A stretch of 64,000 nucleotides of DNA from an uncultured Bacteroidia bacterium (GTDB lineage: Bacteria; Bacteroidota; Bacteroidia; Bacteroidales; F082), in the NCBI GenBank assembly GCA_902786745.1, contig CADADR010000002.1, positions 248,001 to 312,000 on the forward strand, written 5' to 3'. The notes under the pieces were generated by a model. The model ran no database searches and was not told where the DNA came from. It saw only the letters and a program-made list of their open reading frames with translations. Below, one piece after another: positions 19,542-61,871 of this stretch. A program made the position numbers and the translations under genes. Within the stretch, counting starts at the first letter, position 1. Every line of letters begins with the position of its first letter.

Positions 19542-20440
19542 AAACCTTAATTGTCATCGCTGGCCCCACCGCCTCAGGCAAGACCGCTTTCGCCATTAAA
19601 GTGGCCAAGGCCTTGAACACGGTCATTCTCTCCGCCGATAGCCGTCAGTTCTACAAGGAGATGAGCATCGGCACTGCGGCACCCACCGAGGATGAGCTGA
19701 GTCAAGCCAAGCATTACTTCGTGCACCACATCAGCATCGAGGACAAATACGACGTGGCCGACTACGAGCATGATGCCATACAACTCTTGGATGAGCTCTT
19801 CAAGACCCATGACGCCGTCGTCATGACGGGTGGGTCGGGTCTCTTCATTGATGCCGTCTGCAATGGCATCGACGCCATGCCCGACGTGGAACCTAAAATC
19901 AGGGAAAAAGTCGAAAAGCTATACCATGACGAAGGCTTGCATGGCATGCAAGAGGCCTTGCAGCGTCTCGACCCCGACTATTACGCCATCGTCGACCAGC
20001 AGAATCCACGCCGCCTGCAACGCGCTTTGGAGGTGTGCTACCAAACCGGAAAGCCATTTTCCTCTTTCCGCAGCGGCAACACCGCCAAGCGCGACTTCGA
20101 CATCAAGAAATACGCTTTGCTTTGGGATCGTCAGCAACTTATCGAGCGCATCGACCATCGTGTGGACATGATGATGGAACAAGGGTTGTTGGACGAAGCC
20201 AAAGCCTTGTATCCCCAACGACATCTAAACGCTCTCAACACCGTTGGATATAAAGAGCTATTTGCCTATTTCGACGGACAATGCACGCTCAAGGAAGCCG
20301 TGGAGCAAATCAAGATTCACACGCGGCAATATGCCAAACGGCAGATGACGTGGTTAAGGAAAGATACGGGGTATCAATGGATCATGCCAGAAGACATCGA
20401 CGAAGTCGTTGGTCAGACCAAACCGTTCAAAAAGGCATAA
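19538..20440 (+). CDS. miaA: tRNA dimethylallyltransferase
   Basis: A 300-residue enzyme that transfers an isopentenyl group to A37 of tRNAs reading UNN codons. Family landmarks: P-loop IAGPTASGKTAFAI, SADSRQFYKEMSIGTAAP, GGSGLFIDAV, NPRRLQRALEV, TVGYKELF and the C-terminal RQYAKRQMTWLRKD. It ends with IMPEDIDEVVGQTKPFKKA, and its last 28 nt overlap the convergent response-regulator gene. The codons for AKRQMTWLRKD belong to a 32-nt stretch found again, unchanged, at 30286-30317. The region after it resembles, but differs from, that second copy. The real 3' end of this gene may therefore have been supplied by inserted DNA. Confidence 0.95.
   Translation: MKTLIVIAGPTASGKTAFAIKVAKALNTVILSADSRQFYKEMSIGTAAPTEDELSQAKHYFVHHISIEDKYDVADYEHDAIQLLDELFKTHDAVVMTGGSGLFIDAVCNGIDAMPDVEPKIREKVEKLYHDEGLHGMQEALQRLDPDYYAIVDQQNPRRLQRALEVCYQTGKPFSSFRSGNTAKRDFDIKKYALLWDRQQLIERIDHRVDMMMEQGLLDEAKALYPQRHLNALNTVGYKELFAYFDGQCTLKEAVEQIKIHTRQYAKRQMTWLRKDTGYQWIMPEDIDEVVGQTKPFKKA
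20333..20405 (+). repeat. Direct repeat, left copy, inside miaA 3' end
   Basis: Bases 20333-20364 are identical to 30286-30317 (32 nt, including AACGGCAGATGACGTGG). Similarity then continues with mostly third-position changes to about 20405/30358. The two copies flank the kinase/regulator/surface-protein module in direct orientation. Confidence 0.85.
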
Positions 20441-21045
20441 TTCACCATTTCGGTGGTAGTGTTGCAACCAATTTTCTGAAAAACCTTGCGCTTGTGTCCC
20501 TCTACGGTACGGTCGCTGATAAACAGCTCCTCAGCGATCTGTTTTGACGACTTGCCAAGGGCACACAAACGAATGATTTCTATTTCCCTTTCGGTCAACG
20601 GGTCAACCAAAGGATCCTCTTCCTCTTCGGCCAGTGATTCCTTATCGAACACATCCTCTCCTCGGAAGATGGACCGAATGGTTGTGGCCAGCCCCTGGGG
20701 CGTGACGTCCTTGGTGGTAAAGCCATTAAGCCCAGCTTCCCTCAGTTTGGGCATATTGGGATTATCTTCTTCACCCGTAACGAGGAGCACTTTCACTTGG
20801 GGGCAAACCTGTTTTGAGGTTTTCAGCACATCCATTCCGGTGCCATCAGACAGGTAATAGTCGAGCAGAATCAAGTCGATGTCATTGGGATGGTCCCTTA
20901 TAAACGTCACTGCCTGACTCACATTCTCGGCCTCTCCTACCACGGCACAGTCAAGTCCCGAATACGACAATGCCATGCGAAGCCCTACCCTATAGAGCGG
21001 ATGGTCTTCAACCATCAAAATCCTAATTTTCTTGCTTTGTTTCAT
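20413..21045 (-). CDS. LuxR/NarL-family response regulator (module 1)
   Basis: A 210-residue transcription regulator, cytoplasmic partner of the kinase at 21042-23021. The receiver domain has IRILMVEDHPLYRVGLRMAL, the phosphoacceptor Asp in IDLILLDYYLSDGTGMDVL, and lysine in LNGFTTKD. The C-terminal helix-turn-helix is NarL-like: LTEREIEIIRLCALGKSSKQ, then ELFISDRTVEGHKRKVFQKI. The start MKQSKK at 21045 is chosen because it overlaps the kinase stop in the pattern ATGA; a longer in-frame start exists at 21072. The 3' end overlaps miaA tail-to-tail. A paralogous regulator lies at 61239-61871. Target genes are likely the neighbouring secreted proteins, by position only. Confidence 0.9.
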   Translation of the reverse strand: MKQSKKIRILMVEDHPLYRVGLRMALSYSGLDCAVVGEAENVSQAVTFIRDHPNDIDLILLDYYLSDGTGMDVLKTSKQVCPQVKVLLVTGEEDNPNMPKLREAGLNGFTTKDVTPQGLATTIRSIFRGEDVFDKESLAEEEEDPLVDPLTEREIEIIRLCALGKSSKQIAEELFISDRTVEGHKRKVFQKIGCNTTTEMVNYAFLNGLV

Positions 21046-23021
21046 ACTTTTGCCTTTTTGACATTGAAACAAATTGTCGTGCCTTGGCCCTCAGCGCTTT
21101 CGATAATCAGTTGACCACCGTTTTTCACCATCAATTGGCGGCTGACGAAAAGCCCGATACCTGATCCGCGCTCACCCTGCGTACCCTGGGAAGGAGTCAC
21201 CGTATCGTGAGTCAATTGTTGCAAGCGCTCTTGGCCGATGCCTATGCCCGTGTCGGCCACTTCGACCCACACCCGGTCGCCATCGTCGATGCTACTCACC
21301 TTAATGGTGCCTCCTTGCGGAGTGAACTTGATGGCATTGGAGAACAGATTCTGGAAGACAATATCGACGACATTCTTCTTGTCGAAGCACACGCACGACT
21401 TGGGGATGTTATTTTCGACACTCAACTTCTTGTATTTCAGCTCTTCGGAATGCAGGCTAATGCCCTTGCCGATAAAGTCAGACAGATTGAACTCTTCTGA
21501 TGGGACGGCATCCTTGCCCATCTCACCGCTGATCCAATGCAAGATATTGTAGAGTTTGTCCTTCAGTTCGTCGGAACCCTTCTTAAGCATAGACAGTTTT
21601 TCCTTCAGCTCTTCGTGGTCCAGGTTTTCGTAATGCTCGTTGACCATTTTCAGCACCATGTTTTGCGCCAAAACCGAAGTCTTAACGTCGTGCGAAGCTA
21701 CCGAGAGGATCCTCTGCTGCGTTTGATTGAGACGTTCCAAAATCTCACTTTGTTTCTTTCTGGCACGAACCAAGCGGACCAAAATGACCACGATGGCTAC
21801 CAACAATCCCGAAAGAAGAATCAAAGCCAAGATCTCGCGAGCCTTCAGCTTGTTGTTTCGTTGCTGAATGTCGAGTTCGTGTTCCATCTGGGCCATGTCG
21901 TATTTCACCTGATAGTCACGAATCAAGGCCTGTTGCTTCTCATTGAAAATGGAATCTTTGTAGGCGACACTTTGTTCAAGATAGTCTAAAGCTTTGTTAG
22001 GGTCGAACATACGAGAAGCTTCATATGCCCCAAGATAAGACTGGCGCAGACATTCATCGTAGCCGTTTTCTTTAGCCAAAGCCATCGCCTTTTGGTAGTG
22101 TGCTTCCGATTCCTGGTATTTCTCTTGCTTAAAAGCGAATTTTCCGAACAGGATTTCGATTTCGGCCTCTCTGAAACTCTCTTCTTCGTCTTTGGCCATT
22201 TGTAAGGCCTCATTGAGCAGACCGACAGCATTATCGGCTTGCCCATTGGCGAAATACGCCCGCGACAACACGATTTTGCGCTGAATCACCTTGCCGGGTC
22301 TGTCGCCGTGATTGACTGAATAGTCATAGGCTTGCTCCATGAGACTGACAGCCTTTTCCACCTTCTCCTTGCGAGGTTCACCCTCCATACCCTCGGCTTG
22401 CGTCAAATAAACATCCGCCAGGTTATGAAGATAGGTGGCCAAATCCAAATAATCATCGTCCTCTTGGGGTTCGCCTACCATGTCGATACACCTCATAAAC
22501 ATCTCCTCGGCCTTGTCATTCTCGCCCATCGAACTATAGATATTCGCCATATTGTTTGTGGTATAACGGATGTTCTTCTCGTAGAACGGGTTAGGTTCCT
22601 GCTCGTTAAGCAAGGTCATGGCGGCATTGCATTGGTTATAGCTTTCGATGGCTTCATTCATCTGCCCCAAACGCTGGTAAGCCACACCCAGAAGGTTGTA
22701 ACATCCAGCGGCATCGAAGAGGTCGCCGCGTTTTTCGTAACTATCGATGGCTATTTTGGCATAGTTGACGACTTCTGTCATTTCGCTACGGTCAAAATGC
22801 CAGTAAATAAGCTTCTTCAATACGGCTTCGTTCATCTGTTCAGCACTTATATCTTCGGTGAAACAAACCGTGTCGCCGGTCATGACTGCAATCTCGTTGG
22901 CCACGTTAATCGCCATCTCTCCTTTGCTGGCCAAGAATACATTGTAGAGACTATCTATTTCGCTTGCAAGCAACGAGACGTTGGCAAGCAAAAACAAAAC
23001 CATAAACGAAAGACAACGCAT
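21042..23021 (-). CDS. TPR-sensor histidine kinase (module 1)
   Basis: A 659-residue inner-membrane kinase. A signal peptide (MRCLSFMVLFLLANVSLLAS) is followed by about 350 residues of periplasmic tetratricopeptide repeats (GCYNLLGVAYQRLGQMNEAI, IYSSMGENDKAEEMFMRCID). Then come a transmembrane helix (LALILLSGLLVAIVVILVRL), a HisKA-like helix with the phosphoacceptor in SVASHDVKTSVLAQ, and an HATPase domain with NLFSNAIKFTPQGG, VADTGIGIG and GSGIGLFVSRQLM. The start at 23021 is preferred over 23093 because a TAnnTTTG box (23040-23047) lies between them and the signal peptide starts there. The receiver gene overlaps its end. The sensed signal is unknown; TPR sensors usually bind a partner protein or peptide. 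Confidence 0.9.
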   Translation of the reverse strand: MRCLSFMVLFLLANVSLLASEIDSLYNVFLASKGEMAINVANEIAVMTGDTVCFTEDISAEQMNEAVLKKLIYWHFDRSEMTEVVNYAKIAIDSYEKRGDLFDAAGCYNLLGVAYQRLGQMNEAIESYNQCNAAMTLLNEQEPNPFYEKNIRYTTNNMANIYSSMGENDKAEEMFMRCIDMVGEPQEDDDYLDLATYLHNLADVYLTQAEGMEGEPRKEKVEKAVSLMEQAYDYSVNHGDRPGKVIQRKIVLSRAYFANGQADNAVGLLNEALQMAKDEEESFREAEIEILFGKFAFKQEKYQESEAHYQKAMALAKENGYDECLRQSYLGAYEASRMFDPNKALDYLEQSVAYKDSIFNEKQQALIRDYQVKYDMAQMEHELDIQQRNNKLKAREILALILLSGLLVAIVVILVRLVRARKKQSEILERLNQTQQRILSVASHDVKTSVLAQNMVLKMVNEHYENLDHEELKEKLSMLKKGSDELKDKLYNILHWISGEMGKDAVPSEEFNLSDFIGKGISLHSEELKYKKLSVENNIPKSCVCFDKKNVVDIVFQNLFSNAIKFTPQGGTIKVSSIDDGDRVWVEVADTGIGIGQERLQQLTHDTVTPSQGTQGERGSGIGLFVSRQLMVKNGGQLIIESAEGQGTTICFNVKKAKV

Positions 23022-23039
23022 AACAATCCATTTTTGGCA

Positions 23040-23047
23040 CAAAAATA
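23040..23047 (-). promoter_or_regulatory. -7 box of module 1 kinase/regulator operon
   Basis: TATTTTTG on the minus strand, 18 nt upstream of the kinase start at 23021. It decides against the longer reading frame that begins at 23093. Confidence 0.6.
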
Positions 23048-23134
23048 TCGCTTTTTTGTTCCCCGAAAACCATTGCTTCAAACAAACACACAAAAACGCG
23101 TAATTTTACCTATAGCCAAGCCATTTTTTTGTTA

Positions 23135-23142
23135 TATTTTTG
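23135..23142 (+). promoter_or_regulatory. -7 box of the 947-residue surface protein
   Basis: TATTTTTG followed by C, 69 nt upstream of the start at 23212. It is divergent from the kinase promoter about 90 nt away, so one regulator-binding region could serve both. Confidence 0.55.
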
Positions 23143-23211
23143 CCCCAACGGATATAAAAAAAGAATAATTACGATTATTCAACCATAAGTTCAACTTAAA
23201 TTCAAAGCATT

Positions 23212-26055
23212 ATGAAAAGACTTCTACTAACAATTCTGTCGGTGATAGCTTTCGCTGGCGCGAGCAAAGCCCAGCATGTGTATTCGGCAGGCTACTTCTC
23301 GGATGGCGGCCAAAGACGTGCCGCAGTTTATATGGACGCTACGTTGTTGTATAGTTCATCTATAGGTAATGGCAACAACGAATCCTCCTCTGTGGTGGTG
23401 AACCCCAGCAACCAAGATGTATATTGGGTACGAAACAGTACTGTTCCTTCGTATGGTGACATCATGAAAAACGATGAAGTATTCCTTAATAACTATACGA
23501 CGGGTACCAAAATCAACAAATTGTATTGGCATGACAATAATTCTTCCAATGACCCAGAGTATTGTTTGTTCTCTGCTGGCTACACATACACCAGTCAAGA
23601 AAGTGCATATGCTGCTGTTTGGCGTGGTTCATCAGATGCCGAATTCTTATGCCCGGATTTTGGGAACGGTTATCAATCGATGGCGAATGGCATCTGTGTT
23701 TCGGGAAATGCCGCCTACCCTGACGTATGGTATTGTGGTGTCAAGTACACTAACCAAGGGGGTGTCGGACCTGGTTATGGTCCCCGAGCCACTGTATGGA
23801 AAAACAATTCACTCATGTACACACTCTCCGACATCAACTCTACTGCCAATGATATTGCTTACTATAACGGAGATGTCTATACATGCGGTTATGAGATCGT
23901 TGGCGAATACCATGTCGCAAAGGTGTGGAAAAACGGCTCAGTACTATACACACTCGGCGACGGTTCTGACAACTCAAATGCCTTTAAGATTAAGGTTGAT
24001 GGCGGAGATGTATATGTCAGCGGTTTTGTTTCTGGCAGTCGCATCATCTGGAAAAACGGAGAGATCCTCTATGATAGCCCTTGGTTGCTTGCTGGCATCG
24101 TGGTAAATTCTGAAGGAGTGTATTATAGTAGCAATTCAAGTGCTGGATCGACTAGCTGCCGAATCTTTAAGGATAATCAAATTATTTTTACTGTTCAAAA
24201 TTGCGAAGGTATCAATGACATCTTTCTGACTCCAGAAGAATGTACCAATCCGCAGCCCCGCCAGTTGCCATATTTCGAAGGTTTCGAGATGGGCACTACC
24301 GAATGGGCGTGTTGGGCTACCACTGATGAGGGAAACAATCTTGACGATCAAGGGACAGAAAGAGTTTCATATTGGCACCGCCTTGGTGTTATGGGAGATT
24401 ATTTGCCCTACACAGGAGCCCACTGTGCCTACCACCGCTACGGAAAACAGGCACAGGAAGGCTGGCTTATCAGCCCGCCCCTAATTATACCTTCTAACAA
24501 AAATGTAGAACTGACTTTCCAAACATTAGAGGAATACGGCTATGACATGGATTTTGAAGGCGTTATGGTGTCTACTACCAATCCGAATCCTAACGCCTTC
24601 CAACAAGTATGGTCACAATCCGACCCGAGCAACAGCTGGAAGGAAGTGACTATTGACCTGTCTGCTTATCAGGGTCAAACTATTTATATTGCCTTTGCTT
24701 ATATTGGCACCAATGCCCATGACTGGTATCTTGACGATGTGAGAGTAGAAGCGACTGGCGAAAACGAATATACCATTACAACAAACGTGAACCCTGTTGG
24801 TGCTGGCACAGTGGATGGCGCAGGCACCTATCCCGCAGGCGAGACAGTTTACCTCACCGCCTCCGCCAACCCAGGCTGGCAATTCAGCCATTGGAACGAC
24901 GGCATTACTACCAACCCGCGCAGCATCATCGTAAATGGTAACGCCACCTACACTGCCAATTTCTTGCAACAGAATTACACACTCACCGTCAATGCCAGCC
25001 CTGCTGAAGGTGGCACGGTGACTGGTGGCGGCAGCTACCATTATGGCGATGTGGCCACACTTACAGCAACGGCTAACAATGGCTTCACCTTCATTAGCTG
25101 GAGCGACGGTAACACCAATGCTACACGAACAGTCACGGTGACAGGCAATGCGACATACACGGCACTCTTCAACGCCGCTGGCACTACCATGTACACGGTC
25201 ACAGTGCTCTCCGACAACCCGCTGCTAGGCTCAGTGAGTGGCGGCGGCACCTATCCCGAAGGCGCTGTCATCCAAATTACAGCCACACCTAATCTAAACG
25301 CCCGCTTCGTCAGCTGGGACGACGGCAACACAGACAACCCACGCGATGTGATAGTAACAGGCAACATGACCTTCCACGCCATATTTGCCGCATTACAGCA
25401 TTATACCATTACCGTTGAGTCGGCCAACCCAACCATGGGAACGGCCACAGGTGGCGGTTCCTTCCTTGAAGGCACTACCATCACCATCAGCGCTACGCCA
25501 TACTCTGGCTACTACTTCACTAGTTGGGACGACGGCAATGCCGACAACCCACGCACCATTACCGTCACTCAAAATGCCACTTACAAGGCACAGTTCTCGG
25601 CAAATGCCGTGGTCACCTACACACTGACTGTGATATGCAACAACGCCGAAGGCACCGTCATTGGCGGCGGCACATATACTGCAGGCGCCACTGCCACCAT
25701 CGCCGCCATTCCCAACAGCGGCTATGAATTTGACAAGTGGAGCGATGGCAGTTCACACAACCCACGTCAAGTGATCGTTAACGACAATATGGTTTTCGTG
25801 GCCTTCTTCAAGGGCACAGGCGTCGACGAGGGCGAACTCAACCCGATGACGCTCTACCCCAACCCTGCCAAGGAGAGCATCCGCATCCTCGGCATCGAAG
25901 CCAACAGCACCATCGAGATCTATAACAGCCTCGGCGAGCGAGTGAGGACGGTCAACGCCGGCCCCGACCAGGAGATCGGCGTCAGCGACTTAGCCTCAGG
26001 CCTCTACCTCGTGCGCTGCGGCAACCGCATCCTGCGCTTCATAAAGCAACAATAA
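23212..26055 (+). CDS. T9SS-secreted protein with anchor-J domain and five InlB-like repeats
   Basis: A 947-residue exported protein. Signal peptide: MKRLLLTILSVIAFAGASKA. Residues of about 22-340 contain repeated units such as VWKNNSLMYTLSD and VWKNGSVLYTLGDG followed by VYTCGYE/VYVSGF, which look propeller-like. Residues of about 350-517 form a choice-of-anchor-J/cleaved-adhesin type domain (LPYFEGFEMGTTEW, WLISPPLIIP, DWYLDDVRVEA). Five tandem divergent InlB-B/Listeria-Bacteroides repeats of about 68 residues follow (518-863), each with GGG.Y and a WsDG.t.NPR core. The C-terminus is a type A T9SS sorting domain (MTLYPNPAKESIRI, LASGLYLVRC). It should be exported by T9SS and attached or released at the surface. 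It is divergent from the TPR kinase. Ligand unknown. Confidence 0.88.
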   Translation: MKRLLLTILSVIAFAGASKAQHVYSAGYFSDGGQRRAAVYMDATLLYSSSIGNGNNESSSVVVNPSNQDVYWVRNSTVPSYGDIMKNDEVFLNNYTTGTKINKLYWHDNNSSNDPEYCLFSAGYTYTSQESAYAAVWRGSSDAEFLCPDFGNGYQSMANGICVSGNAAYPDVWYCGVKYTNQGGVGPGYGPRATVWKNNSLMYTLSDINSTANDIAYYNGDVYTCGYEIVGEYHVAKVWKNGSVLYTLGDGSDNSNAFKIKVDGGDVYVSGFVSGSRIIWKNGEILYDSPWLLAGIVVNSEGVYYSSNSSAGSTSCRIFKDNQIIFTVQNCEGINDIFLTPEECTNPQPRQLPYFEGFEMGTTEWACWATTDEGNNLDDQGTERVSYWHRLGVMGDYLPYTGAHCAYHRYGKQAQEGWLISPPLIIPSNKNVELTFQTLEEYGYDMDFEGVMVSTTNPNPNAFQQVWSQSDPSNSWKEVTIDLSAYQGQTIYIAFAYIGTNAHDWYLDDVRVEATGENEYTITTNVNPVGAGTVDGAGTYPAGETVYLTASANPGWQFSHWNDGITTNPRSIIVNGNATYTANFLQQNYTLTVNASPAEGGTVTGGGSYHYGDVATLTATANNGFTFISWSDGNTNATRTVTVTGNATYTALFNAAGTTMYTVTVLSDNPLLGSVSGGGTYPEGAVIQITATPNLNARFVSWDDGNTDNPRDVIVTGNMTFHAIFAALQHYTITVESANPTMGTATGGGSFLEGTTITISATPYSGYYFTSWDDGNADNPRTITVTQNATYKAQFSANAVVTYTLTVICNNAEGTVIGGGTYTAGATATIAAIPNSGYEFDKWSDGSSHNPRQVIVNDNMVFVAFFKGTGVDEGELNPMTLYPNPAKESIRILGIEANSTIEIYNSLGERVRTVNAGPDQEIGVSDLASGLYLVRCGNRILRFIKQQ

Positions 26056-26076
26056 GACGTTTGTGATTGTTATCCC

Positions 26077-26110
26077 GGTTTCCGTGGCTGGCTTGCCCGC
26101 CACGGAAACC
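26077..26110 (+). terminator. Perfect 12-bp hairpin after the T9SS protein gene
   Basis: Arms GGTTTCCGTGGC (26077-26088) and their complement (26099-26110) enclose a 10-nt loop, 21 nt after the stop codon. The following bases AATTTTCG contain only a weak T-run. It may be an attenuating terminator or an mRNA 3'-end stabiliser before the next gene. Confidence 0.5.
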
Positions 26111-26131
26111 AATTTTCGAATCTTATAACCC

Positions 26132-29100
26132 TTGACCGCCACACCAACCATGAAAAGAAAAACATTACTCCTCTTCCTGCTCCTTGCTCTCCTTGCTCCC
26201 TGGTCAGCCAAGGCGCAACAATACGTGACCATTGGCAATTCGCAAAGTCCGTTCAGCACAGGTCTTTTTCCTGTTGCAACAGGGTGGTATTATTCTTTGT
26301 CACAGCAAATTTATACCTCCGACGAAATCGGGATGGCAGGCTACATCTCTTCCATCGCCTTCGATTATATAGTCAACGAATCATTCTCCATGGAAGGCGT
26401 GCAAGTGTATATGAAGAATGTAAGCAAGTCGTACTTCGAGTCGAATACTGACATGGTGTCCCTCGATGGTGCCACCAAGGTGTTTGAAGGCACTTTTACG
26501 GTTCAGGGGCCTGGCTGGGTGACGATTCAATTTGATACGCCTTTCTTCTACGATGGCACAAGCAATCTCTTGCTTTGCTGTTATGACCCCACAGAAGGCC
26601 TTATACAATGGAACTCGGAGTTATGGTTCCGTACAACAAAGGCTAATAGTAATAGAAGTATATGCTACTACAGTAATGAGTATTGTCCCGACATTAATGA
26701 TTTGTCGAATTATCAAGGCTATTACGGAAATTGCGATTATAATACCAGCAACATCCAACTTGTAATCTTTCCCAATATCTATTTCGAAGACCAATTACTG
26801 GAAGACATCTGCTTACAGCATTGGGACAGCAACGGAGACAACTCACTGAGCTACCCCGAAGCTGCTCAAGTGAGTAGCTTAAGCCTAGCATTCAATGGCA
26901 CTGGCATTAGCACATTCGACGAATTGCAGTATTTCACTGGGCTAGCCACTCTTAATCGATATGAATTCCAAAACTGCAATTCACTTGAGCGCATAACCGT
27001 CCCTCGGTCGGTCAACCTGATTCAACCCAGCATTTTTCAGGGATGCAACTCGTTGCGGCATATCACCGTAGACCCAGACAACCCGACCTTCGATTCGCGC
27101 GACAATTGCAATGCCATCATCGAGACAGCTACCAACAAGTTGGTCGCGGGTTGCAAAAGCACCATCATCCCCGAGGGCGTCACCGCCATTGGCGAAGGAG
27201 CACTCGAGAATTTGCCTATGAGCACACTCACTTTGCCGTCAACGCTTCAGACGATTGAAAGCTATGGCATACACCTCATCGATGGTTTGGAAAGCCTAAC
27301 GGTTAACGCCGTCACGCCACCCACAATCACCGAGCATTTCCTCTATGGCACTCCAAGGACCATCCCCGTCATCGTGCCTGTGGAAAGCCTCGCAGCCTAT
27401 CATAATTACAACAACACCGGACAACCTTGGGGCGGCTTCACCAACATCATTGCCGATGGCAACATCTCCTTCGTTGACCCCGCCGTGAAGGCCATCTGCG
27501 TGGCCAACTGGGACACCAACGGAGACGGCGAACTGAGCTATGCCGAAGCCGCCGCAGTGACCACCTTGAATCCTTCGGGACTATTCAACGGCAACGTGTT
27601 CTTTAATAATACCGAAATCACCTCGTTCAATGAATTGGAGTACTTCACCGGACTGACGAGCATCAATGATTACGCCTTCTATGGATGCAATAACTTGACT
27701 TCCGTCACCCTCCCGCATAGGGTTACCTCGATCGGAAACTCTGCGTTCTATAATTGCAGTGGCCTAACCTCGGTGACCATCGGCAACTCCGTGACCTCGA
27801 TCGGAGATTCGGCGTTCAATCATTGCACCAGCCTAACCTCGGTCACCATCGGCAACTCCGTGACCTCAATAGGCAGCTATGCTTTCGGTTCGTGTAGCGG
27901 ACTTACCTCTGTGAACATCCCCGACTCCGTGACCTCGATCGGAAGCACTGCGTTCTATAATTGCAGCGGCCTAACCTCGGTCACCATCGGCAACTCCGTG
28001 ACCTCAATTGACAGCTTTGCGTTTGAGGGATGCTCTAGCCTGACCTCGGTGACCATCCCTGCCTCGGTAACAAGCATAGGCAGTAATCCATTCGCTTATT
28101 GCGACCTACTTGAATCCATCACGGTGGATCCAGGCAACACAGTGTACAGCTCGCCCAACGGTTGCAACGCCATAATCAAGACTGCTGACCACCTGCTGGT
28201 TTTGGGCTGCAAGAACACCGTTATTCCTAACGATGTCACAACCATCTATGGTCATGCTTTCTATGGTTGTATTGGACTAACTTCCATTGAGATTCCTGCT
28301 TCTGTATCGAACATTTACACAAGCGCTTTCAACAGGTGTTCCAATCTCGAGGAAATAAGAGTTTGGGCTGTAACGCCACCCACCGCCTTCACACTTTGTT
28401 TTAACTATGTCCCTACCGACATTCCCGTTTATGTACCCTGCAACACGAAAACCGCCTATCAACAAGCGAGTGGTTGGAGTGTCTTCACCAATTACATCGA
28501 CCCGTGCGCCAACATCGACTTCGCCTATGAGGCAGTGAAAGCCATCTGCGTGGAATACTTTGACGCCAACCAAGACGACGAATTGAGCTACAGCGAAGCC
28601 GCAGCTGTGCTGAGTTTGGGTACGGTATTTCAAAATGCTTTCCAAGATGAAGGAACAAGTGTTTCTTTCAACGAGTTGCGATACTTCACCGGACTGACGA
28701 GCATCGATGATGATGCTTTTTCAAGCTGTTGGTCTCTGACTGCGTTAACGCTTCCTCCCTCAGTGCTAACCATCGGTGAGTTTTCCTTCTATGGCTGCAA
28801 CTTTTCCTCAATCGTGATCCCCAATTCGGTAACCTCCATCGGTAGCCATGCCTTCCGCAGTTGCGACGCCCTCACCTCGATAACGATTCCGAGCTCGGTG
28901 ACCTCCATCAGCGAGAATCCGTTTTTTTATTGCCCCGCATTGGCAAGCATCACGGTGGAGGCAGGCAACACGGTGTACAGCTCACCCGAGGGCTCTAATG
29001 CCATTATCAAGACTGAGGAACACAAACTGGTTTCGGGCTGCAAGAACACGGTCATCCCTGAAGGCGTGACCACCATCGGAGCATCCGCCTTCGGTGGCTG

Positions 29101-30268
29101 TTCGAGTCTCACTGAGATACACATCCCTAGCTCCGTGACGCTTATTGATGCTTGGGCATTCATGGATTGTTCAGGCCTCATCACCGTCACTATTCCCAGC
29201 TCGGTGTCTTTCATCGGCAATGTTGCCTTCAATGGATGCACAGGCCTTTCTTCCATCACTGTGGAACGCGAGACACCGCCCACGTTAGACAATGGTGTCT
29301 TCGATAATACTAGCATCCCCGTCTACGTGCCCTGCGGCAGCCTTGAGGCCTACCAAAACTACAACAACACGGGCACGCCCTGGGGCGGCTTCACCAATAT
29401 CCACGACCTCTGCGAGAACCCGCTTTGCGTGGCCCCAACCAATGTGGAGGTGACCAGCACCGAGCCACAAAATGGCTACAACGGTTTTACTTTCAGCTTC
29501 ACGCCTGGGCATGAGGAACAGACTTTATGGTCCTTCTACGTGAGCGAGGATTACGAGTTGCCCGCAACCTATCAGGAGATGGTCGCCAATGGCTGGTTAG
29601 GTAGCACGAATCAAACCGTGGGCAGTTATTATCCCACGGATGAGGACGAATTGGCGATGGAAGGCACGACCTACTACCTTTGGGTGGGCTACAACTGCGG
29701 CACTGAAGGAGACCCCGACATCGTTTGGAGCGAAGGTCCCGCCACGGTCACCATACCTTCGGAAATTGTGTATAATCTTACATCTGGCGTCAACTGGTGG
29801 GCTCCTCTATCACCAATAACCTTGGGAGAACTTAAGTCCCAACTATACGGCATACCTGTTGTCATCAACTCGCAAAACGAAGGATTCTTATACGGTGAGA
29901 ACGACTGGAGTGGTACGCTCAGCAAAAGCGACGACTACATCATCCAGCCCGGAGAGATGTACAAGATTGTGATCAAAGACGATAGCAGTAAAGATGTCTA
30001 CGTATTTGCTGTGCCACAAACTTGGGCCAATGTCGAACTACAGCATGGCTACAACTGGTTCGGCTATACTGGAAACACAAAGCCCATCGCCAACGCCATC
30101 GGGCTCAACAGCCCGCCAACTAACGGTGACAAGATCATCGACGAAAACGGCCACGAGGCTACCTACCAAGACGGCAGTTGGACTGGCGATTTGACCCACT
30201 TGTATAAAGGTCGTGGCTACGTCTACTATTCCGCCGCCGATTACACCAGACCGCTTTATCTGCAATAA
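26132..30268 (+). CDS. BspA-type leucine-rich-repeat surface protein with WNW C-terminal domain
   Basis: A 1378-residue exported protein. Signal peptide MKRKTLLLFLLLALLAPWSA. The N-terminal β-rich domain (25-225) has GWVTIQFDTPFFYDGTSNLL. Three EF-hand-like modules (about 229, 458 and 808) read DSNGDNSLSYPEA, DTNGDGELSYAEA and DANQDDELSYSEA, each followed by FNELxYFTGLTSI-type linkers into BspA LRR_5 repeats (SVTIGNSVTSIGSYAFGSCS; about 23 residues each). A fibronectin-like domain follows (about 1095-1210, APTNVEVTSTEPQNGYNGF). The C-terminal 160 residues carry two halves with VNWWAP and YNWFGYTG, shared with the proteins at 50004 and 56696. No canonical T9SS type A domain is seen. It probably binds host or matrix molecules. 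It is downstream of, and co-directional with, the 947-residue gene. Confidence 0.85.
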   Translation: MTATPTMKRKTLLLFLLLALLAPWSAKAQQYVTIGNSQSPFSTGLFPVATGWYYSLSQQIYTSDEIGMAGYISSIAFDYIVNESFSMEGVQVYMKNVSKSYFESNTDMVSLDGATKVFEGTFTVQGPGWVTIQFDTPFFYDGTSNLLLCCYDPTEGLIQWNSELWFRTTKANSNRSICYYSNEYCPDINDLSNYQGYYGNCDYNTSNIQLVIFPNIYFEDQLLEDICLQHWDSNGDNSLSYPEAAQVSSLSLAFNGTGISTFDELQYFTGLATLNRYEFQNCNSLERITVPRSVNLIQPSIFQGCNSLRHITVDPDNPTFDSRDNCNAIIETATNKLVAGCKSTIIPEGVTAIGEGALENLPMSTLTLPSTLQTIESYGIHLIDGLESLTVNAVTPPTITEHFLYGTPRTIPVIVPVESLAAYHNYNNTGQPWGGFTNIIADGNISFVDPAVKAICVANWDTNGDGELSYAEAAAVTTLNPSGLFNGNVFFNNTEITSFNELEYFTGLTSINDYAFYGCNNLTSVTLPHRVTSIGNSAFYNCSGLTSVTIGNSVTSIGDSAFNHCTSLTSVTIGNSVTSIGSYAFGSCSGLTSVNIPDSVTSIGSTAFYNCSGLTSVTIGNSVTSIDSFAFEGCSSLTSVTIPASVTSIGSNPFAYCDLLESITVDPGNTVYSSPNGCNAIIKTADHLLVLGCKNTVIPNDVTTIYGHAFYGCIGLTSIEIPASVSNIYTSAFNRCSNLEEIRVWAVTPPTAFTLCFNYVPTDIPVYVPCNTKTAYQQASGWSVFTNYIDPCANIDFAYEAVKAICVEYFDANQDDELSYSEAAAVLSLGTVFQNAFQDEGTSVSFNELRYFTGLTSIDDDAFSSCWSLTALTLPPSVLTIGEFSFYGCNFSSIVIPNSVTSIGSHAFRSCDALTSITIPSSVTSISENPFFYCPALASITVEAGNTVYSSPEGSNAIIKTEEHKLVSGCKNTVIPEGVTTIGASAFGGCSSLTEIHIPSSVTLIDAWAFMDCSGLITVTIPSSVSFIGNVAFNGCTGLSSITVERETPPTLDNGVFDNTSIPVYVPCGSLEAYQNYNNTGTPWGGFTNIHDLCENPLCVAPTNVEVTSTEPQNGYNGFTFSFTPGHEEQTLWSFYVSEDYELPATYQEMVANGWLGSTNQTVGSYYPTDEDELAMEGTTYYLWVGYNCGTEGDPDIVWSEGPATVTIPSEIVYNLTSGVNWWAPLSPITLGELKSQLYGIPVVINSQNEGFLYGENDWSGTLSKSDDYIIQPGEMYKIVIKDDSSKDVYVFAVPQTWANVELQHGYNWFGYTGNTKPIANAIGLNSPPTNGDKIIDENGHEATYQDGSWTGDLTHLYKGRGYVYYSAADYTRPLYLQ

Positions 30269-50003: not shown

Positions 50004-53000
50004 TTAAAACGTTATCGTCTTCGTCTCGTTGGCTACCGAATGGTAGAGATACCCCTTGCCAGGGTTGAGGCTCGTAAAGTTACCCTCCCAGTTCTCGCCA
50101 TCGTAATAGACCGAATCGCCGTTTTCGTCGATAATCTCGTCTCCATCGCTTGGCTCGAAGCTACCCAAAGCCTCGGCGATGCTGAGGCCAGCCGGACCCG
50201 TGTAGCCAATCCAGTTGAAGCCAGGCTCGATGGTAACGGCAGTGCCTGACGACAAACCTCCTTCGACTTCGAAAAGCACAGGATCGCCTGCCGTGAGTTG
50301 AATCTTGTACATCTTCCCTAGTCCAACCTCACTCAGCGTGCCGCTCCAAGCATTTTCATAGCGTGCGAAGCCTTCGTTTTGCGAGAGGATAAGGATGCCT
50401 CTGTTGCCCAGGTTCGTTTCAATGTCGCCCAATTCCATCTCAATTGTGGGAGCCCACCAGTTCCAGCCTCCGTTCAAGGTTATTGTCTGCAAGCATCCCT
50501 CACTAACGATGTTGGTGAAGCCACCCCAAGGCGAGCCATTGCAGTTTTGATAATCCCCAAAGGACGCGCAAGGAACATAGACGGGGATGGTTTTGTCGAC
50601 ACCATAGAAAGAGTCTTGATCACCCGTGACGATTTTGGGAGGATTTGTGGCTTCGACGGTAATGGATTGCAATCCCGTGCAGTTGCAGAACCCTCTCTCG
50701 CCAATTGAATCCAACGATGCGGGTAGCGTGATATCCATCAGAGACGAACACCCGTAGAAAGCAGCACCATTAATCGTAGTAATGCTTTCAGGCAAGTCTA
50801 TGAATGTCAGTGCCTTGTTTTCACGGAACGCATTCGGACCAATGGAAGTCACCGTATTGGGGATAATCGTGCTTTTGCAACCTATACGCAATTGGTTAGA
50901 GCTTGTCGCGATGATGGCATTGCAGTCGTCGCGAGAATCGTAGATAGTGTTACCTGGCGCAACGCTGACATATTCCAGACCCGAACAGCCTAGGAAAGCA
51001 TGACTCGGAATAGAGATAACCGAAGCAGGAATAAAGAGGTAGGTCAAACTGGAGCAATGATCGAAGGTTTGAGCACCGATAATTCTTAAGCTTTCAGGGA
51101 AAACGAAATCGGTCAGATGAGTGTCGTACATGAAAGCATAACTACCAATAGTGGTCAGGCCCTCTGGTACGATGACCGTCGTAAGATTGGGGCAATAACT
51201 AAAGGCGCTTGTACCGATGCTGGTTACTCCGACTGGGATGACGACGGAAGTCAGATTGCCACAACCACCAAATGCATGATCAACGATGCTTGTCAAACCC
51301 GTGAAATACTGCAACTCGTTGAATGTTGTGATGTCATCATTGTTCTTGAACACTTCGCCTAATGTTGTCACTGCGGCGGCCTCTGTATAGCTCAGCTCGC
51401 CGTCGCCACTGGTGTCCCAACCTGTGGATGAAGCAACGCAGAGGGCCTTCACGTTTTGGTCTTCAAAGACGATGTTGTTAGTATTGAAAGTGACAGTATT
51501 GCTCCAAGCGAACACCTCGCCTTCGCAGATGGGCCGCACCCGCACAGTATAGGTTTTGCCAGGCTCGAGATAGGGCGCACCCAAGACATAGGGATGGTGA
51601 TAGGTGGCAAAACCAAGTTCATTCTCGCCTGCTGCCGCATAGGCTATCCCCCATTCGGTGGCATCGCCATTCTCGGTCCAATCCAACTCAACGGTGAGGT
51701 TGTCTATCACTTCGACGGTGAGATTGGTCGGAGCCGGGCATGGCGACAGCGTTGTGAATTCCACACCCTCCGACCAACTACTGAAGTGGTCAGTGCCGTT
51801 CACCACAAAATGCGAGCGAATGCGGGCATAGTAAGACGAATTCGGCTCAAGATACTCGTAGTCATCCCACACGAAGAAATAGTCTGGCAGATCGCTAAGA
51901 AGCTGGTCTTCCGCTTCGTCGAAGTCGGGGCTCCATGAGACCTCAATGTCATAGGATATGGCTCCGTCAACCTGCTCCCACCAGAAGAAGACCTCGTTAC
52001 TACCTTGAGCATAGGCAATGAACTCGGTGGGCGGCTTGTAAGGGTCGGGCTCGTATGCAAAAGTAACTTGGGGAAGGAACTCTTCACATTGTACGCCCGC
52101 AAGTTGCGTATTATAAAGGGCCTGCGTGGTATTGGTGTTCACGCCATGCCATTCCAAGCCTTGATGACAATCGCCTGTTTGGTTTTGTCTGATTCCAACC
52201 ACCAAGTTGCCGTTGGTATAATAGAATCCGCCACCGAAAGAAGGAGTGATCGTCATCACATGGTGTTCAATGCTAAGTGTGCCATTATAAAACTGTGTCA
52301 TGTAGTTCCAATTCACGAAATCGACTGTATTGGCCTCACATTTATTTACGAAGTCAGATGTGTTAACCTCCGTTATGAAGATCTGGAAGGATGCATCATC
52401 CCATTCTTCACTATCTGATTCGCTATAGAAACTCAATTTTTTGATGGTGCTATATTGCATATCAGTCAGCATATCAGCCGGGATGACAAATTGTGTCTGT
52501 GACATGGGGTTGGACATGCAGCAATAATCGCCCATAATAACCACATTTTCATTTGTCTCGTTACCTTCGTTCACTGTAAGACGATCATAGTCGTCGGTCG
52601 AGAACTCCACCCAGATGGATTCACTACCACCGTCGCCTCCCGTGCAAGAGCCGCTAATCTGGGCCTGAAACTCCGAACCAGGTGTAAGTCCTGTCATTGT
52701 AAAAGAAGGCGAGGTGAGATCGTGACCATACATATCATCATAGCCGTACACATAGATATACCAACTGGTCTGGTTGGGCTGTCCAGGCTCCCAGGTGATG
52801 GTGGCGGTGGTTTGCGTGGTCACCACTTGGGGATTCTTGGGCGGGGCGCAAAGCGAAGTGGTTTGGAAATATGTGGTTGGGGTCCAACTGCTTTCGGTTC
52901 CAAAGACCGGATCACGATGACGCACCCAGACACGGTAGTATGAAGCGGCTTCCAGCCCATTGATGACCTGTTCATGGGTGTTACCAGAGACAAAGAAATA

Positions 53001-56539: not shown

Positions 56540-56666
56540 AGATTCCCTTCGGGAATGGAAAGTCATTGCTATGTAAAAAGCGGCGGCGTGAGGAGCCTAC
56601 AAGTCGTATGCGCCACAAGCCGCCGCGTTATAAAAAATAAACGAACTCCATTCCCGAAGGGAATCT
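56540..56666. repeat. Family C element, copy 2 (127 bp with 19-bp inverted ends)
   Basis: Ends AGATTCCCTTCGGGAATGG (56540-56558) and its complement (56648-56666) are identical to those of copy 1 at 43684-43811. The inner pair GCGGCGG (56580-56586) and CCGCCGC (56620-56626) is also kept, but the remaining interior differs. No target-site duplication is evident. Confidence 0.85.
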
Positions 56667-56695: not shown

Positions 56696-59600
56696 TCATT
56701 CGGTTGAAGGTCTGACATAGATGTAGCCCTTGCCCTGCTCAAGCGACGTAAGCGTCCCCTTCCACGTCGTACCGTTGTATATGGCGAAGCCATTGTCTTG
56801 AGAGATAATCTTGTCGCCAATGTTGGGCACGAACGATGTCCCGAACATTGTAGTAAGGGCAGTGGAAATTGCTGCTGTCGTGCCAGTGTATCCGATCCAG
56901 TTGTTGCCGTCATGGATAGTGACACTGCTGGCGGGAACTGTGCGACCCGATAATTCGTACATACCTTCTTCAGCCACATGAACCTTGACCATTTGGCCGG
57001 GAGTAATGACTCTTATGTTTTCTTCCTCACATATCACGGCATCGCTGCCAAGCTCGTCTTGCATCGCTTCCACAATCACCTCGACGCTTGGTGCAATCCA
57101 GTTCCAACCTGGGTCTAAGCCTATCAATAACGTTGTAGGCGAAGCGTCCTGGTCTTCACAAAGCGTATGGGTGGGCAACAAAACCATGCGGTATTCTGGG
57201 TTTTCGCCAAGACCAGCAGGCTCGGTCGTCGTGAAGGTGACCGTGCTGCTTGGCTCAGTGCAACACACAAAAACACCCTCGCAAGGCTTGATGGGCGTGC
57301 CAGCAGGAACTCCAACAATGGCGTCGCCCGTGTCGTTCATCCTGTAGAACGGGATGTAATTGTCGCCCTGCTTCAGATAGGCATTGCAGGTGAATGGGTT
57401 ACCGATGAGGTTCATGCCAACCAACTTAACGTCAGTGTTTGAATTATCGTAGTTAATGTAGACATCCACATCTTCATCGGTAGCGGAGAATGAACTGCTG
57501 GTTTGAGCCGTACTGAAATTCACCGTCATATCGTCTTGAATGGAATAAAGATAACCCGTAGAGCGAACCATCAGCTGACTTCCATAGATGGAGCCTTGAG
57601 GATAAGTTCCAGCGGGTGAGCTGCATCCGCCTTCCGACGTGCATTTCTCGTTCCTCCATTCCTCACTAAAATAGTGATCAAATCTATACAAGTCCATCTT
57701 GTCGAAGTCGAGTTCCGTGCCATTCAGAGGCACCAAGGGGTCGTTGATCGAAATGTCGACGGGCGACGCAATGAGATACCAATTCAGCCTATCGTTCACG
57801 TTGACAGCGCCATAGCCTGTGATGTTCTTCTCGATGGTGGCGAAGAACTGGTTAGCCGACTTCACTTGGCCGCCGTCGTTGATGAGCAGCCAATCGCTCG
57901 CAACAGCGTTTTCACCTGTAATGGTATTGGCATTGAGGACACCACCAGGGCCGACAATAACGGAAAGGTCGGCACCAGGAATAAGGGTAGTGATGTTGGC
58001 TTCGCCGCAAATGTAAGAAGCTCTAGCCGCGTTGACATTGAGGGTGCCAATGGTAGCTGAACCATCGGGATATATGTCTAAGCCCATAAACGGATACGTT
58101 TCATACGACTCTCCGTTTATATTGACTGTATTGGCAGACAGGCTACCAACCGTCACAGCGATGCTTCCAGGAGCCGTCAAATTGGCAGTTCCGACCGTCG
58201 CGTTATCGCTGCTGATAGTAAGATGATGGGCATTTTGATTGAGGGTGGTGATGTTCCAGTTGCCCTCATTACTAGCAAAAACCTTGTCAAAGCCAAAGCT
58301 GGCCGTGCCGATATTGAGGGTGCCGCCACCTTCCACATTCACTTTGTTTTCAGGAATGTCCATCTCGCCAACCGTCAACTCACCGCCAGAATTAATGTCA
58401 AGATAACCCTGCGTACCAAAACGCAACGTGCCCACTGTCGGGTCGCAACCGTCAGGCACATCGGCGCGGCTCATAAGCGTCACATTCAAGGAAGGTGAAT
58501 ATGAGGGTGCGACAGGATACCAGTTGTTGCTATTATTCCAGTCAGAATTGTTACTAAGCGCATCGTCAAAAATACTCATACCGTAGCTTTCGTTATCGAA
58601 AGAGGTAATCACCACATCGTCGATGAACCACTCGGCGGCCGCATCGCTTCCGTGGTCGAATCTGACGCTGATCGTTTTGGTGCTTCCGTTGTTATCAGGG
58701 AGCCAGCGGCTTAGTGAGAGGTGAATCTGTTGCCATTGGTCGCACCCATATTCTGGCATTTCATAAATTTCGACCTCTTGGTCGCCGACCAACACCTTCA
58801 CCTTGTTGCCCGTGCCAACCTCGCCGCTGCACTTGGTCCAGAAGCGAAGCACGAGATAGCTTGACCCTTTACTCACATAATTATCATTCAATTCGATCTC
58901 AGGCGTGTCGATATAATCGTACCAACCTGCAACGGGATTATAATTACTGCGGAGACACCAGTTGTGGCCACCATAGCCGTCATAGATGCGGCTCCAATTC
59001 GTTGTATAAGTCCAACAAGCGGGATTAAGCACAATGTTGTCGAAGTCCTCGGTAAAGGGTTCCATGTCTTTCAACTCATAGGCTTGGCATTGCGTTGCAA
59101 AATAGTAATTGGGCGACGACCATTCCGTATAGCCACCTTCAGGACAAATGGTACGAATGCTAAGCAAATAGGCACTAGAAGGGTCAAGGTTTGTCAACGT
59201 ATAGGTATACTGCTGTTGGGGATTTGTATTGTCAGCATAAATAAAATCTTCATTCCAACCTATGTTTGTATTGGTCGGGATGGTCATGTTTCTGTAACGG
59301 ACGATGAAGCCTGTCGAATGTGTGGTCCCAGCCTCGTAGTTGGGATCGTTCCAGTGGAATGTGGCTGATGTTGATTCCAGTGCATAAGTATCAATGCCGC
59401 TAATATTATCACAGCTTCCCTTGGGGAAGATGTGGATGTTATCGACATAGGTGCTCTCGCCACTGCCGTGATCGGTAAAGACAAGGCGGAACCTTAATTT
59501 CGACACCCCTCCTTGCAGTTCAGTAGGAATGCTGAATGTGCCATTCCTTTCAACCCACCCTTGCTCGCTCCATGAGAAGCCCCATGAGCCTGCTGATCGC

Positions 59601-61069: not shown

Positions 61070-61238
61070 ATTACTATTATTTATTTTATTGATACTCAAT
61101 ATTTTACGTTGTGAAGAAAAACATCTGCTTCACCGATGTAAAAATATACCATAAAAAACAAGAAAAATGAGGAGAAAACTCCTTCATTTCTCAAGAGTTA
61201 TCAACAAGTTAGTTGAGAGTTTAGAGTCGGGAGTGTTC

Positions 61239-61871
61239 TCAGTTGACGAGGCCGACGCGGAAGGCGAAAAGGATGAGCTCGTTGGTCGACTTCACCCCTA
61301 CCTTGCTGAAGATGCTGCTCTTCATGTTCTCGATGCTGTGGGGCGTGACACACATCTCATCGGCCAACTGTTTGGTATTCAGTCCAGTGGCACACAAACT
61401 AATGAGTTCCATCTCGCGGCGCGTGAGGGTCTTCATGGTCTCATAATCGGCCTTGAGGTCACTCTCGATGCGCATGTGGGCCTCGCCCGTGTAGTCGTTG
61501 CCCGCCATCACCGAACGCAACACCAAGGCAATCTCCTCCGAGTTGATGCTCTTGCTCATGAAGCCGTTCACCCCCGCCTCCAGCAGCTGCTTGACGGTGG
61601 CACCACCCGCCTCGCCCGAGAAGATGACGATCTTGGCATCGGGACAGATTTGCTTAGCCGCGCTAATGACATCCATGCCCGTGCCATCAGGGAGCATATA
61701 GTCCAAAAGCATGAGGTCGGTTTGGCTACCATTCTGCTCAAGGTAGCTTATGGCCTTCGCCACCGTATCGGCTTCGGCCACAATCTGATAGTCGAGATTG
61801 GATTGTTCCAAAGTGGAACGGATGCCCATGCGGCATATCGGTTGGTCTTCGACGATGAGTATCCTAATCAT
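61239..61871 (-). CDS. LuxR/NarL-family response regulator (module 2)
   Basis: A 210-residue regulator, paralogous to the one at 20413-21045. Receiver domain: MIRILIVEDQPICRMGIRST, phosphoacceptor Asp in TDLMLLDYMLPDGTGMDVI, lysine in NGFMSKS. The NarL-type helix-turn-helix has LTRREMELISLCATGLNTKQ and PHSIENMKSSIFSKV. The ATG overlaps the kinase stop (ATGA). The gap of about 170 nt to the 1457-residue surface protein gene shows no clear terminator, so readthrough control is possible as well as activation in trans. Confidence 0.9.
   Translation of the reverse strand: MIRILIVEDQPICRMGIRSTLEQSNLDYQIVAEADTVAKAISYLEQNGSQTDLMLLDYMLPDGTGMDVISAAKQICPDAKIVIFSGEAGGATVKQLLEAGVNGFMSKSINSEEIALVLRSVMAGNDYTGEAHMRIESDLKADYETMKTLTRREMELISLCATGLNTKQLADEMCVTPHSIENMKSSIFSKVGVKSTNELILFAFRVGLVN

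What the first reader, a model, noticed from the sequence alone, without database searches (positions are those of the whole stretch)
20413..30268. A TPR two-component system plus two giant surface proteins forms a module that is repeated at 50.0-63.8 kb
At 20.4-30.3 kb a TPR-sensor kinase and LuxR-type regulator sit beside an anchor-J-type secreted protein and an LRR protein. At 50.0-63.8 kb a paralogous kinase/regulator pair again sits beside one anchor-J/fibronectin protein and one LRR protein. Both kinases share the same order of signal peptide, periplasmic TPRs, one membrane helix and HisKA/HATPase, and both regulators are NarL type. Three of the four surface proteins share one C-terminal domain. 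Two independent occurrences of the same four-part set suggest a functional unit: an envelope TPR sensor that controls surface adhesins or glycan-binding proteins. I know of no named system with this composition.
Basis: partly seen in the sequence, partly recalled or inferred. Interest (0 to 1): 0.8.

Follow-up and report, generated by a model that had tools for sequence, protein, structure and literature searches.

The report
Sensor switches for giant surface proteins
In a Bacteroidales genome whose closest named kin come from ruminant animals, two related sensor-and-regulator gene pairs each lie next to a gene for a very large, predicted surface protein, and a short mirror-image DNA site at a fixed spot in that gene's promoter suggests that each pair likely switches on its own surface protein.

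Summary
The genes are real and, in outline, as described. Both kinases (38% identical) have TPRs and a HATPase domain; the two NarL/LuxR regulators are 40% identical. Their best named relative is FimS of Porphyromonas gingivalis, so "no named system" is partly wrong. They are old, separate lineages, not a recent duplication. The association holds elsewhere: of 56 kinase loci from related genomes, 30 have a secreted protein of at least 1000 aa within three genes, against 2 of 52 other kinases. The recurring unit is kinase + regulator + one giant protein, not four parts. New evidence for regulation: before these giants a palindrome sits about 30 bp upstream of the -7 promoter element (mean score 6.55 there, 2.67 over all offsets; controls at most 3.0), with a sequence that differs by kinase clade. 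P0006 carries AGGAGTTTTCTCCT; P0003 a weak but conserved GTAATTTTAC; P0004 and P0005 none. A second result: the shared C-terminal "WNW" domain has no Pfam family, and in three sets of orthologous giants it stands in place of the T9SS type A sorting domain, which makes it a candidate new T9SS C-terminal domain. Regulation and secretion are both inferred from sequence.

The parts
20413..21045 (-). NarL/LuxR-type response regulator of locus 1 (P0001)
   Evidence: Response_reg 65 bits, GerE 66 bits; start moved to the ATG at 21045
21042..23021 (-). FimS-like sensor kinase of locus 1 (P0002): signal peptide, TPRs, one membrane helix, HATPase
   Evidence: TPR_12 86.7 and HATPase_c 73.9 bits; best NCBIfam model NF053520 FimS, 211 bits against cut-off 600; signal peptide and helix read from the sequence
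23100..23109 (+). operator-like core GTAATTTTAC before P0003, in the shared divergent kinase/P0003 intergenic region
   Evidence: only site in the genome with this core 20-26 bp before TANNTTT; same core and position in orthologue L046; low palindrome score 5.5
23133..23143 (+). putative -7 element TATATTTTTGC of the P0003 promoter
23212..26055 (+). P0003: anchor-J, InlB-type repeats, T9SS type A sorting domain at residues 881-946
26077..26110 (.). hairpin between P0003 and P0004 (16-nt arms)
26150..30268 (+). P0004: BspA-type LRR_5 protein ending in a WNW domain; no -7 element or operator found upstream
   Evidence: LRR_5 415 bits
29756..30265 (+). WNW C-terminal domain of P0004
50004..56384 (-). 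P0005: LRR_5 + fn3 protein ending in a WNW domain; own -7 element but no operator
50007..50483 (-). WNW C-terminal domain of P0005
   Evidence: model pLDDT 85.6
56696..61069 (-). P0006: fn3 surface protein ending in a WNW domain, first gene 3' of the locus 2 regulator
   Evidence: start ATG 61069
56699..57139 (-). WNW C-terminal domain of P0006
61138..61148 (-). putative -7 element TATATTTTTAC of the P0006 promoter
61170..61183 (-). operator-like palindrome AGGAGTTTTCTCCT before P0006
   Evidence: one of two such sites in the genome, and the one with a -7-like element at the usual distance
61239..61871 (-). NarL/LuxR-type response regulator of locus 2 (P0007)
   Evidence: Response_reg 73.5, GerE 43.8 bits
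61868..63766 (-). FimS-like sensor kinase of locus 2 (P0008)
   Evidence: TPR_12 60.9, HATPase_c 86.4 bits; NF053520 205 bits

Best explanation
Each kinase-regulator pair is a FimS/FimR-like two-component switch that likely activates transcription of a neighbouring giant surface protein (P0003 at locus 1, P0006 at locus 2) through a palindrome centred 28-30 bp upstream of the -7 promoter element. Shown here: the gene pairs, their enrichment next to giant proteins with signal peptides in related genomes, the fixed position of the palindrome, its clade-specific sequence and its rarity in the genome. Inferred: the periplasmic TPR domain binds a protein or peptide ligand; the kinase phosphorylates the regulator; the regulator dimer binds the palindrome at about -41 and recruits RNA polymerase in place of a -33 element; the giant leaves through the type IX secretion system, by a type A sorting domain in P0003 and by the WNW domain in P0006. 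P0004 and P0005 are passengers or read-through genes, not core parts.
For: Two full-length kinases of this type in the genome, both beside such genes. Enrichment: secreted protein of 1000 aa or more within three genes, 30/56 against 2/52 (p 3.6e-9); WNW 20/56 against 0/52; without the signal-peptide rule 38/56 against 6/52. One of the 2 control hits, L143, is itself a distant FimS-like kinase with a regulator. In loci with over 4 kb on both sides, 38 of 44 have a protein of 900 aa or more or with a surface domain at -3..+4; in 29 it is 3' of the regulator on the same strand. Palindrome: mean score at exactly 30.0 bp 6.55 in 42 promoters; mean over offsets 2.67, sd 0.60; no offset above 3.0 in 203 control promoters. 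Nine of ten kinase clades score above the mean of other windows there. AGGAGWWWWCTCCT: 24 sites in 15 genomes chosen from the locus 2 clade, reversed pattern 0. 20 of 24 have a -7-like element 26-32 bp away on one side and none on both; in 19 of these 20 that is the side of an ORF with a hydrophobic N-terminus. G024, whose locus-2-type kinase L052 has no adjacent giant, has its one site before a signal-peptide ORF on another contig. At locus 1, G042 and G065 lack the divergent giant but carry a GGTAATTTTAC site before an anchor-J/CTD protein three genes away.
Against: I have no expression or binding data. The P0003 palindrome is weak (score 5.5), its clade averages 6.2 against 5.2 for other windows, and L143 shows none. 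Six of 44 full-context loci have no large neighbour: L052, L058, L066, L085, L093, L094. The second AGGAG site in this genome (C15:3811) lacks the usual spacing, and 3 more of the 24 lack it too. The -7 patterns were written after the promoters had been seen, although controls used the same pattern. Loci are related by descent, so counts are not independent. CTD proteins are not significantly enriched (19/56 against 11/52).
Confidence: 0.72

Rival explanations
1. The neighbourhood is a hot spot for gain and loss of large surface-protein genes, and the kinase pairs are mere neighbours that regulate something else.
For: At locus 1 the pair persists while the cargo changes: L066 and L058 have none, L046 one, the window two. 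WNW genes also cluster away from kinases, e.g. six on contigs C9 and C15.
Against: The palindrome is at a fixed distance and changes sequence with the kinase clade; locus-2-type sites are rare and 21 of 24 precede an ORF with a hydrophobic N-terminus. Control kinases of the same genomes lack the association.
Confidence: 0.13
2. One reading: one envelope sensor controls a fixed set of one anchor-J/fibronectin protein and one LRR protein.
For: Both loci do hold two giants each; L044 also has an LRR gene after the fn3 giant.
Against: P0004 and P0005 lack the operator; a hairpin separates P0003 from P0004 and another P0006 from P0005; LRR proteins are near 5 of 56 loci within three genes.
Confidence: 0.1
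3. The palindrome belongs to another global regulator of surface proteins, and the kinase acts only on its own operon.
For: At locus 1 the site also lies upstream of the kinase (shared divergent region, window and L046), and copies with one mismatch lie upstream of the kinase in L074 and L082.
Against: One global regulator would not predict a different palindrome for each kinase clade within one genus.
Confidence: 0.05
4. For the WNW domain (a separate question from the regulation): it is an adhesive or glycan-binding C-terminal domain, not a sorting signal, and WNW-only proteins leave by another route or stay in the periplasm.
Against: In three orthologue sets WNW stands in place of the type A domain on an otherwise conserved protein. 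It ends 99 of 104 homologues and caps unrelated enzymes: peptidase C10, carboxypeptidase M14, endonuclease I.
Confidence: 0.45

Closest known systems
FimS/FimR of Porphyromonas gingivalis (PMC11053733, PMC1974823, PMC5706477: passages read)
   Same: Kinase with several periplasmic TPRs (eight predicted in FimS), partner response regulator, positive control of surface adhesins; FimR binds promoters of pg2130 and mfa1; signal unknown.
   Different: Score far below the FimS equivalog cut-off (211 and 205 bits against 600). By their locus tags (PGN_0904-0903, PG1432-1431; fim cluster from pg2130) FimS/FimR are not next to the fim cluster; here the pair is next to its likely target, which is a giant multidomain protein and matches no fimbrillin model.
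T9SS type A, B and C C-terminal domains (PMC10202324: passages read)
   Same: C-terminal, shared by unrelated secreted proteins; WNW replaces type A in three orthologue sets; all 29 WNW genomes tested have SprA.
   Different: No Pfam match above noise, and no NCBIfam sorting-domain model in P0004-P0006; about 150 aa in two repeats, not a 70-100 aa domain.
Hybrid two-component systems next to SusC/SusD loci (recalled)
   Same: Bacteroidota sensor next to the genes for the surface proteins it controls.
   Different: No Reg_prop match in the genome; separate kinase and regulator.

Membership tests
FimS/FimR two-component system | periplasmic TPR sensor domain | tested here: met
   TPR_12 86.7 and 60.9 bits in the N-terminal part; periplasmic side inferred from signal peptide and one helix
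FimS/FimR two-component system | score above the NF053520 equivalog cut-off (600 bits) | tested here: not met
   210.8 and 205.2 bits; 0 of 295 genomes sampled from the order pass it
FimS/FimR two-component system | adjacent response regulator with receiver and LuxR/NarL HTH | tested here: met
   P0001, P0007; regulator profile hit within two genes of 56 of 56 kinases
FimS/FimR two-component system | controls fimA/mfa1 fimbriae | not tested
   genome not searched for fimbrillins; the four adjacent proteins carry no fimbrillin model
T9SS type A substrate (P0003) | TIGR04183 above cut-off at the C-terminus | tested here: met
   37.0 bits against 23, residues 881-946
T9SS C-terminal sorting domain (WNW) | matches a known sorting-domain model | tested here: not met
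T9SS C-terminal sorting domain (WNW) | at the C-terminus of diverse secreted proteins | tested here: met
   99 of 104 homologues end with it; enzymes
T9SS C-terminal sorting domain (WNW) | confined to genomes with a T9SS | tested here: inconclusive
   SprA in 29 of 29 WNW genomes given and in 22 of 27 without WNW: no counter-example, but a weak contrast; the other WNW genomes of the genus were not tested
T9SS C-terminal sorting domain (WNW) | interchangeable with a type A domain in orthologues | tested here: met
   three of five sister sets compared; the other two too diverged to tell
T9SS C-terminal sorting domain (WNW) | needed and sufficient for export | not testable with these tools
   needs a fusion experiment
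T9SS C-terminal sorting domain (WNW) | Ig-like fold as in type A | tested here: inconclusive

The most novel reading that the evidence does not exclude
The locus exposes two new things at once: a family of FimS-like sensors whose members each own a private operator, fixed 30 bp before the -7 box, that switches on one giant surface protein; and a fourth class of T9SS C-terminal sorting domain (WNW) that can be exchanged for the type A domain on the same protein.
Probability: 0.4. Interest if true: 0.78.

Novelty: new variant of a known kind. Interest (0 to 1): 0.62.

Why it matters
The signal of the FimS-type TPR kinase is described as unknown (PMC11053733, passages). Here a genus with many such kinases gives dozens of natural experiments, a predicted operator per clade and a predicted target, all testable in vitro. 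If WNW is a sorting domain, a set of surface proteins and secreted enzymes of gut Bacteroidales that end without a known sorting signal becomes assignable to T9SS.

Tried and rejected
Rejected: recent duplication of one module (kinases only 38% identical, each grouping with kinases of other species). No sign of an invertible promoter before P0003 or P0006 in the short windows searched (no inverted-repeat pairs in 23060-23240 or 61040-61290); larger segments were not tested. Rejected: WNW as a kinase-specific partner. Led nowhere: WNW by sequence against PDB (best hit E 0.05, unconvincing); fold comparison by Foldseek and VIA-align 2 (nothing convincing; absence shows nothing). The FimS model is not selective at 200 bits: 167 of 295 genomes of the order have a match at E 1e-50, many over the kinase part only. 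Paper searches for an inverted repeat bound by FimR (0 papers), for TPR/LuxR systems with surface proteins in rumen Bacteroidales (0 papers), for further T9SS sorting domains and for two-component control of BspA-type adhesins listed no title or abstract start that reports either reading; most listed papers were not opened, and the library lacks most subscription journals.

Choices that shape counts: one search listed 62 kinase matches; I left out the 2 of the window and 3 contig-end fragments, and one kinase in two pieces counted once, giving 56 loci; three of these (L088, L092, L093) have broken or partial kinases and are not in the tree. The 52 controls are the non-FimS-like matches with E up to 2.7e-17 among 127 HATPase matches: the first 75 rows less 23 FimS-like ones; the 52 weaker rows, mostly of other sizes or types, were left out. 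Neighbouring genes were called by an ORF rule of my own, and the identity of housekeeping neighbours in other genomes was read from order and size only. Three upstream regions (L060, L063, L143) were added by hand before the score test; 9 of 51 upstream regions had no -7 match and dropped out. The 15 genomes were picked because they hold kinases of the locus 2 clade. The signal-peptide rule is a simple one of my own.
Full report
WHAT IS THERE. The window holds two kinase-regulator pairs. Pfam finds TPRs and a HATPase domain in both kinases and receiver plus GerE domains in both regulators. Each sits beside two long genes: P0003 and P0004 at locus 1, P0006 and P0005 at locus 2. P0003 has anchor-J, InlB-type repeats and a type A T9SS sorting domain; P0004 is LRR_5; P0005 is LRR_5 plus fn3; P0006 is fn3. 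The genome (2.8 Mb, 18 contigs) has two full-length kinases of this kind and nine WNW domains, three of them here and six on contigs C9 and C15. It also has 144 type A domains over the cut-off and SprA, so a type IX secretion system is expected.

RELATIVES. The best named model for both kinases is FimS of Porphyromonas gingivalis (211 and 205 bits, cut-off 600). A search with the two kinases over 119 genomes (own included) found 62 matches in 38. I fetched 56 loci. A tree of 56 kinase rows separates clades with strong support; seven long-branched rows are placed less surely. The locus 1 kinase groups with L046 (78% identical), L066, L058, L060 and L063. L046, L066, L060 and L063 have neighbours of the order and size of the window's ClpB, PcnB-type and MiaA genes; L058 matches on the other side only. 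The locus 2 kinase groups with L044 and L045 (90% identical to L044). So these are two old lineages. Named relatives include uncultured Bacteroidales from red deer, yak and RUG sets (that RUG means rumen is recalled).

ASSOCIATION. I compared the 56 loci with 52 other kinases from 12 of these genomes. Within three genes, a secreted protein of at least 1000 aa: 30 of 56 against 2 of 52; without the signal-peptide rule 38 of 56 against 6 of 52. WNW: 20 against 0. Anchor-J: 11 against 1. fn3: 14 against 0. LRR: 5 against 0 (p 0.058). CTD: 19 against 11 (not significant). One of the two control hits, L143, is itself a distant FimS-like kinase beside a regulator and an InlB/anchor-J giant. Where both sides have over 4 kb, 38 of 44 loci have a large or surface-domain neighbour, in 29 of them 3' of the regulator on the same strand. 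At locus 1 the cargo varies: none in L066 and L058, one in L046, two in the window. The unit is therefore kinase + regulator + one giant, with passengers.

PROMOTERS. The upstream regions of the giants carry palindromes. Scored against the distance to a -7 element, the signal is a single peak at 30.0 bp: mean 6.55 over 42 promoters, with 2.67 (sd 0.60) over all offsets, and no offset above 3.0 in 203 control promoters; scores of 8 or more at 29-32 bp in 18 of 42 against 2 of 203. Nine of ten kinase clades score above the mean of other windows there, the locus 1 clade only slightly (6.2 against 5.2), and L143 not at all. The sequence differs by clade, alongside the regulator's HTH: AGGAGTTTTCTCCT for the locus 2 clade, ATTCCGTATTAATACGGAAT for L077-L088, AATGGGAATTTTTCCCATT for L084/L086, GTAATTTTAC for locus 1. 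AGGAGWWWWCTCCT occurs 24 times in 15 genomes (in 14 of them); the pattern read backwards occurs 0 times. Eleven of the 24 lie at the kinase loci. 20 of 24 have a -7-like element 26-32 bp away on one side and none has it on both; in 19 of the 20 it is the side of an ORF with a hydrophobic N-terminus, and 21 of 24 sites precede such an ORF. In this genome the two sites are before P0006 and before a WNW + CTD protein on C15, the latter without the usual spacing. The locus 1 core with a -7 element is unique in the genome, but its score is low (5.5), so locus 1 rests mainly on conservation in L046 and on L060/L063, where a similar core precedes an anchor-J/CTD protein three genes away. A centre 30 bp before the -7 box lies near -41, where class II activators bind (recalled). 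P0004 has no -7 match and P0005 no palindrome.

WNW. No Pfam family matches above noise and none of P0004-P0006 hits an NCBIfam sorting domain. Homologues end with it in 99 of 104 cases. In this genome it caps two C10 peptidases, an M14 carboxypeptidase and an endonuclease I. In three orthologue sets the body is conserved and the tail differs: L077/L079/L080 with WNW against L087 with type A (71-75% identical over about 1680 columns), L056 against L057 (81% over 1182, less further up), and L078/L084 against L086 (roughly 38-64% in the main pieces). Two other sister sets (L053/L054, L068 against L069/L071) are too diverged. Against a sorting role: WNW can sit before a type A-like tail. SprA is in 29 of 29 WNW genomes given and in 22 of 27 others, a weak contrast. 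A phylum sample found WNW in 20 of 392 genomes. AlphaFold gives a two-repeat, mostly beta model (pLDDT 85.6, pTM 0.80, five sequences) without a convincing PDB match.

LITERATURE. Passages on FimS describe eight periplasmic TPRs and an unknown, possibly polypeptide signal (PMC11053733; PMC5706477). FimR binds the promoter of pg2130 and of mfa1 (PMC1974823). Types A, B and C of T9SS domains are described in PMC10202324 (passages).

VERDICT. An ordinary class of sensor in an unusual, well-defined arrangement. The regulatory link is well supported by sequence and untested at the bench. The WNW exchange is the more novel lead.

Noticed in passing
L010 1-15353 and L011 1-7041 (contigs C9 and C15 of the same genome): Six WNW genes (two C10 peptidases, M14 carboxypeptidase, endonuclease I, others) beside a C25 peptidase gene at two contig starts, perhaps one cluster; sprA lies about 10 kb further on C15.
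   Followed up: partly
L011 3811, L185 2525, L186 and L194 (minus strand): In four species the AGGAG...CTCCT site also lies before an unlinked gene whose product begins alike (SNTPIVA near the N-terminus); in two of the four no -7-like element at the usual spacing was found.
   Followed up: partly
upstream regions: GTTGATAACT occurs in 11 of 48 upstream regions, further out than the palindrome; meaning unknown.
   Followed up: no
window 56540-56666: Large imperfect hairpin (61-nt arms, 74%) between P0006 and P0005, with ATTCCC-GAA-GGGAAT palindromes nearby.
   Followed up: no
L044, L063, L084 (contig C44 of G065): Three FimS-like kinase loci lie within about 54 kb of each other, as two do within about 43 kb in the window; the systems tend to cluster.
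   Followed up: no
P0109-P0112: Distant WNW domains occur in CotH-type proteins and a C25 protease-type protein, followed by a type A-like tail, which may be the ancestral arrangement.
   Followed up: partly
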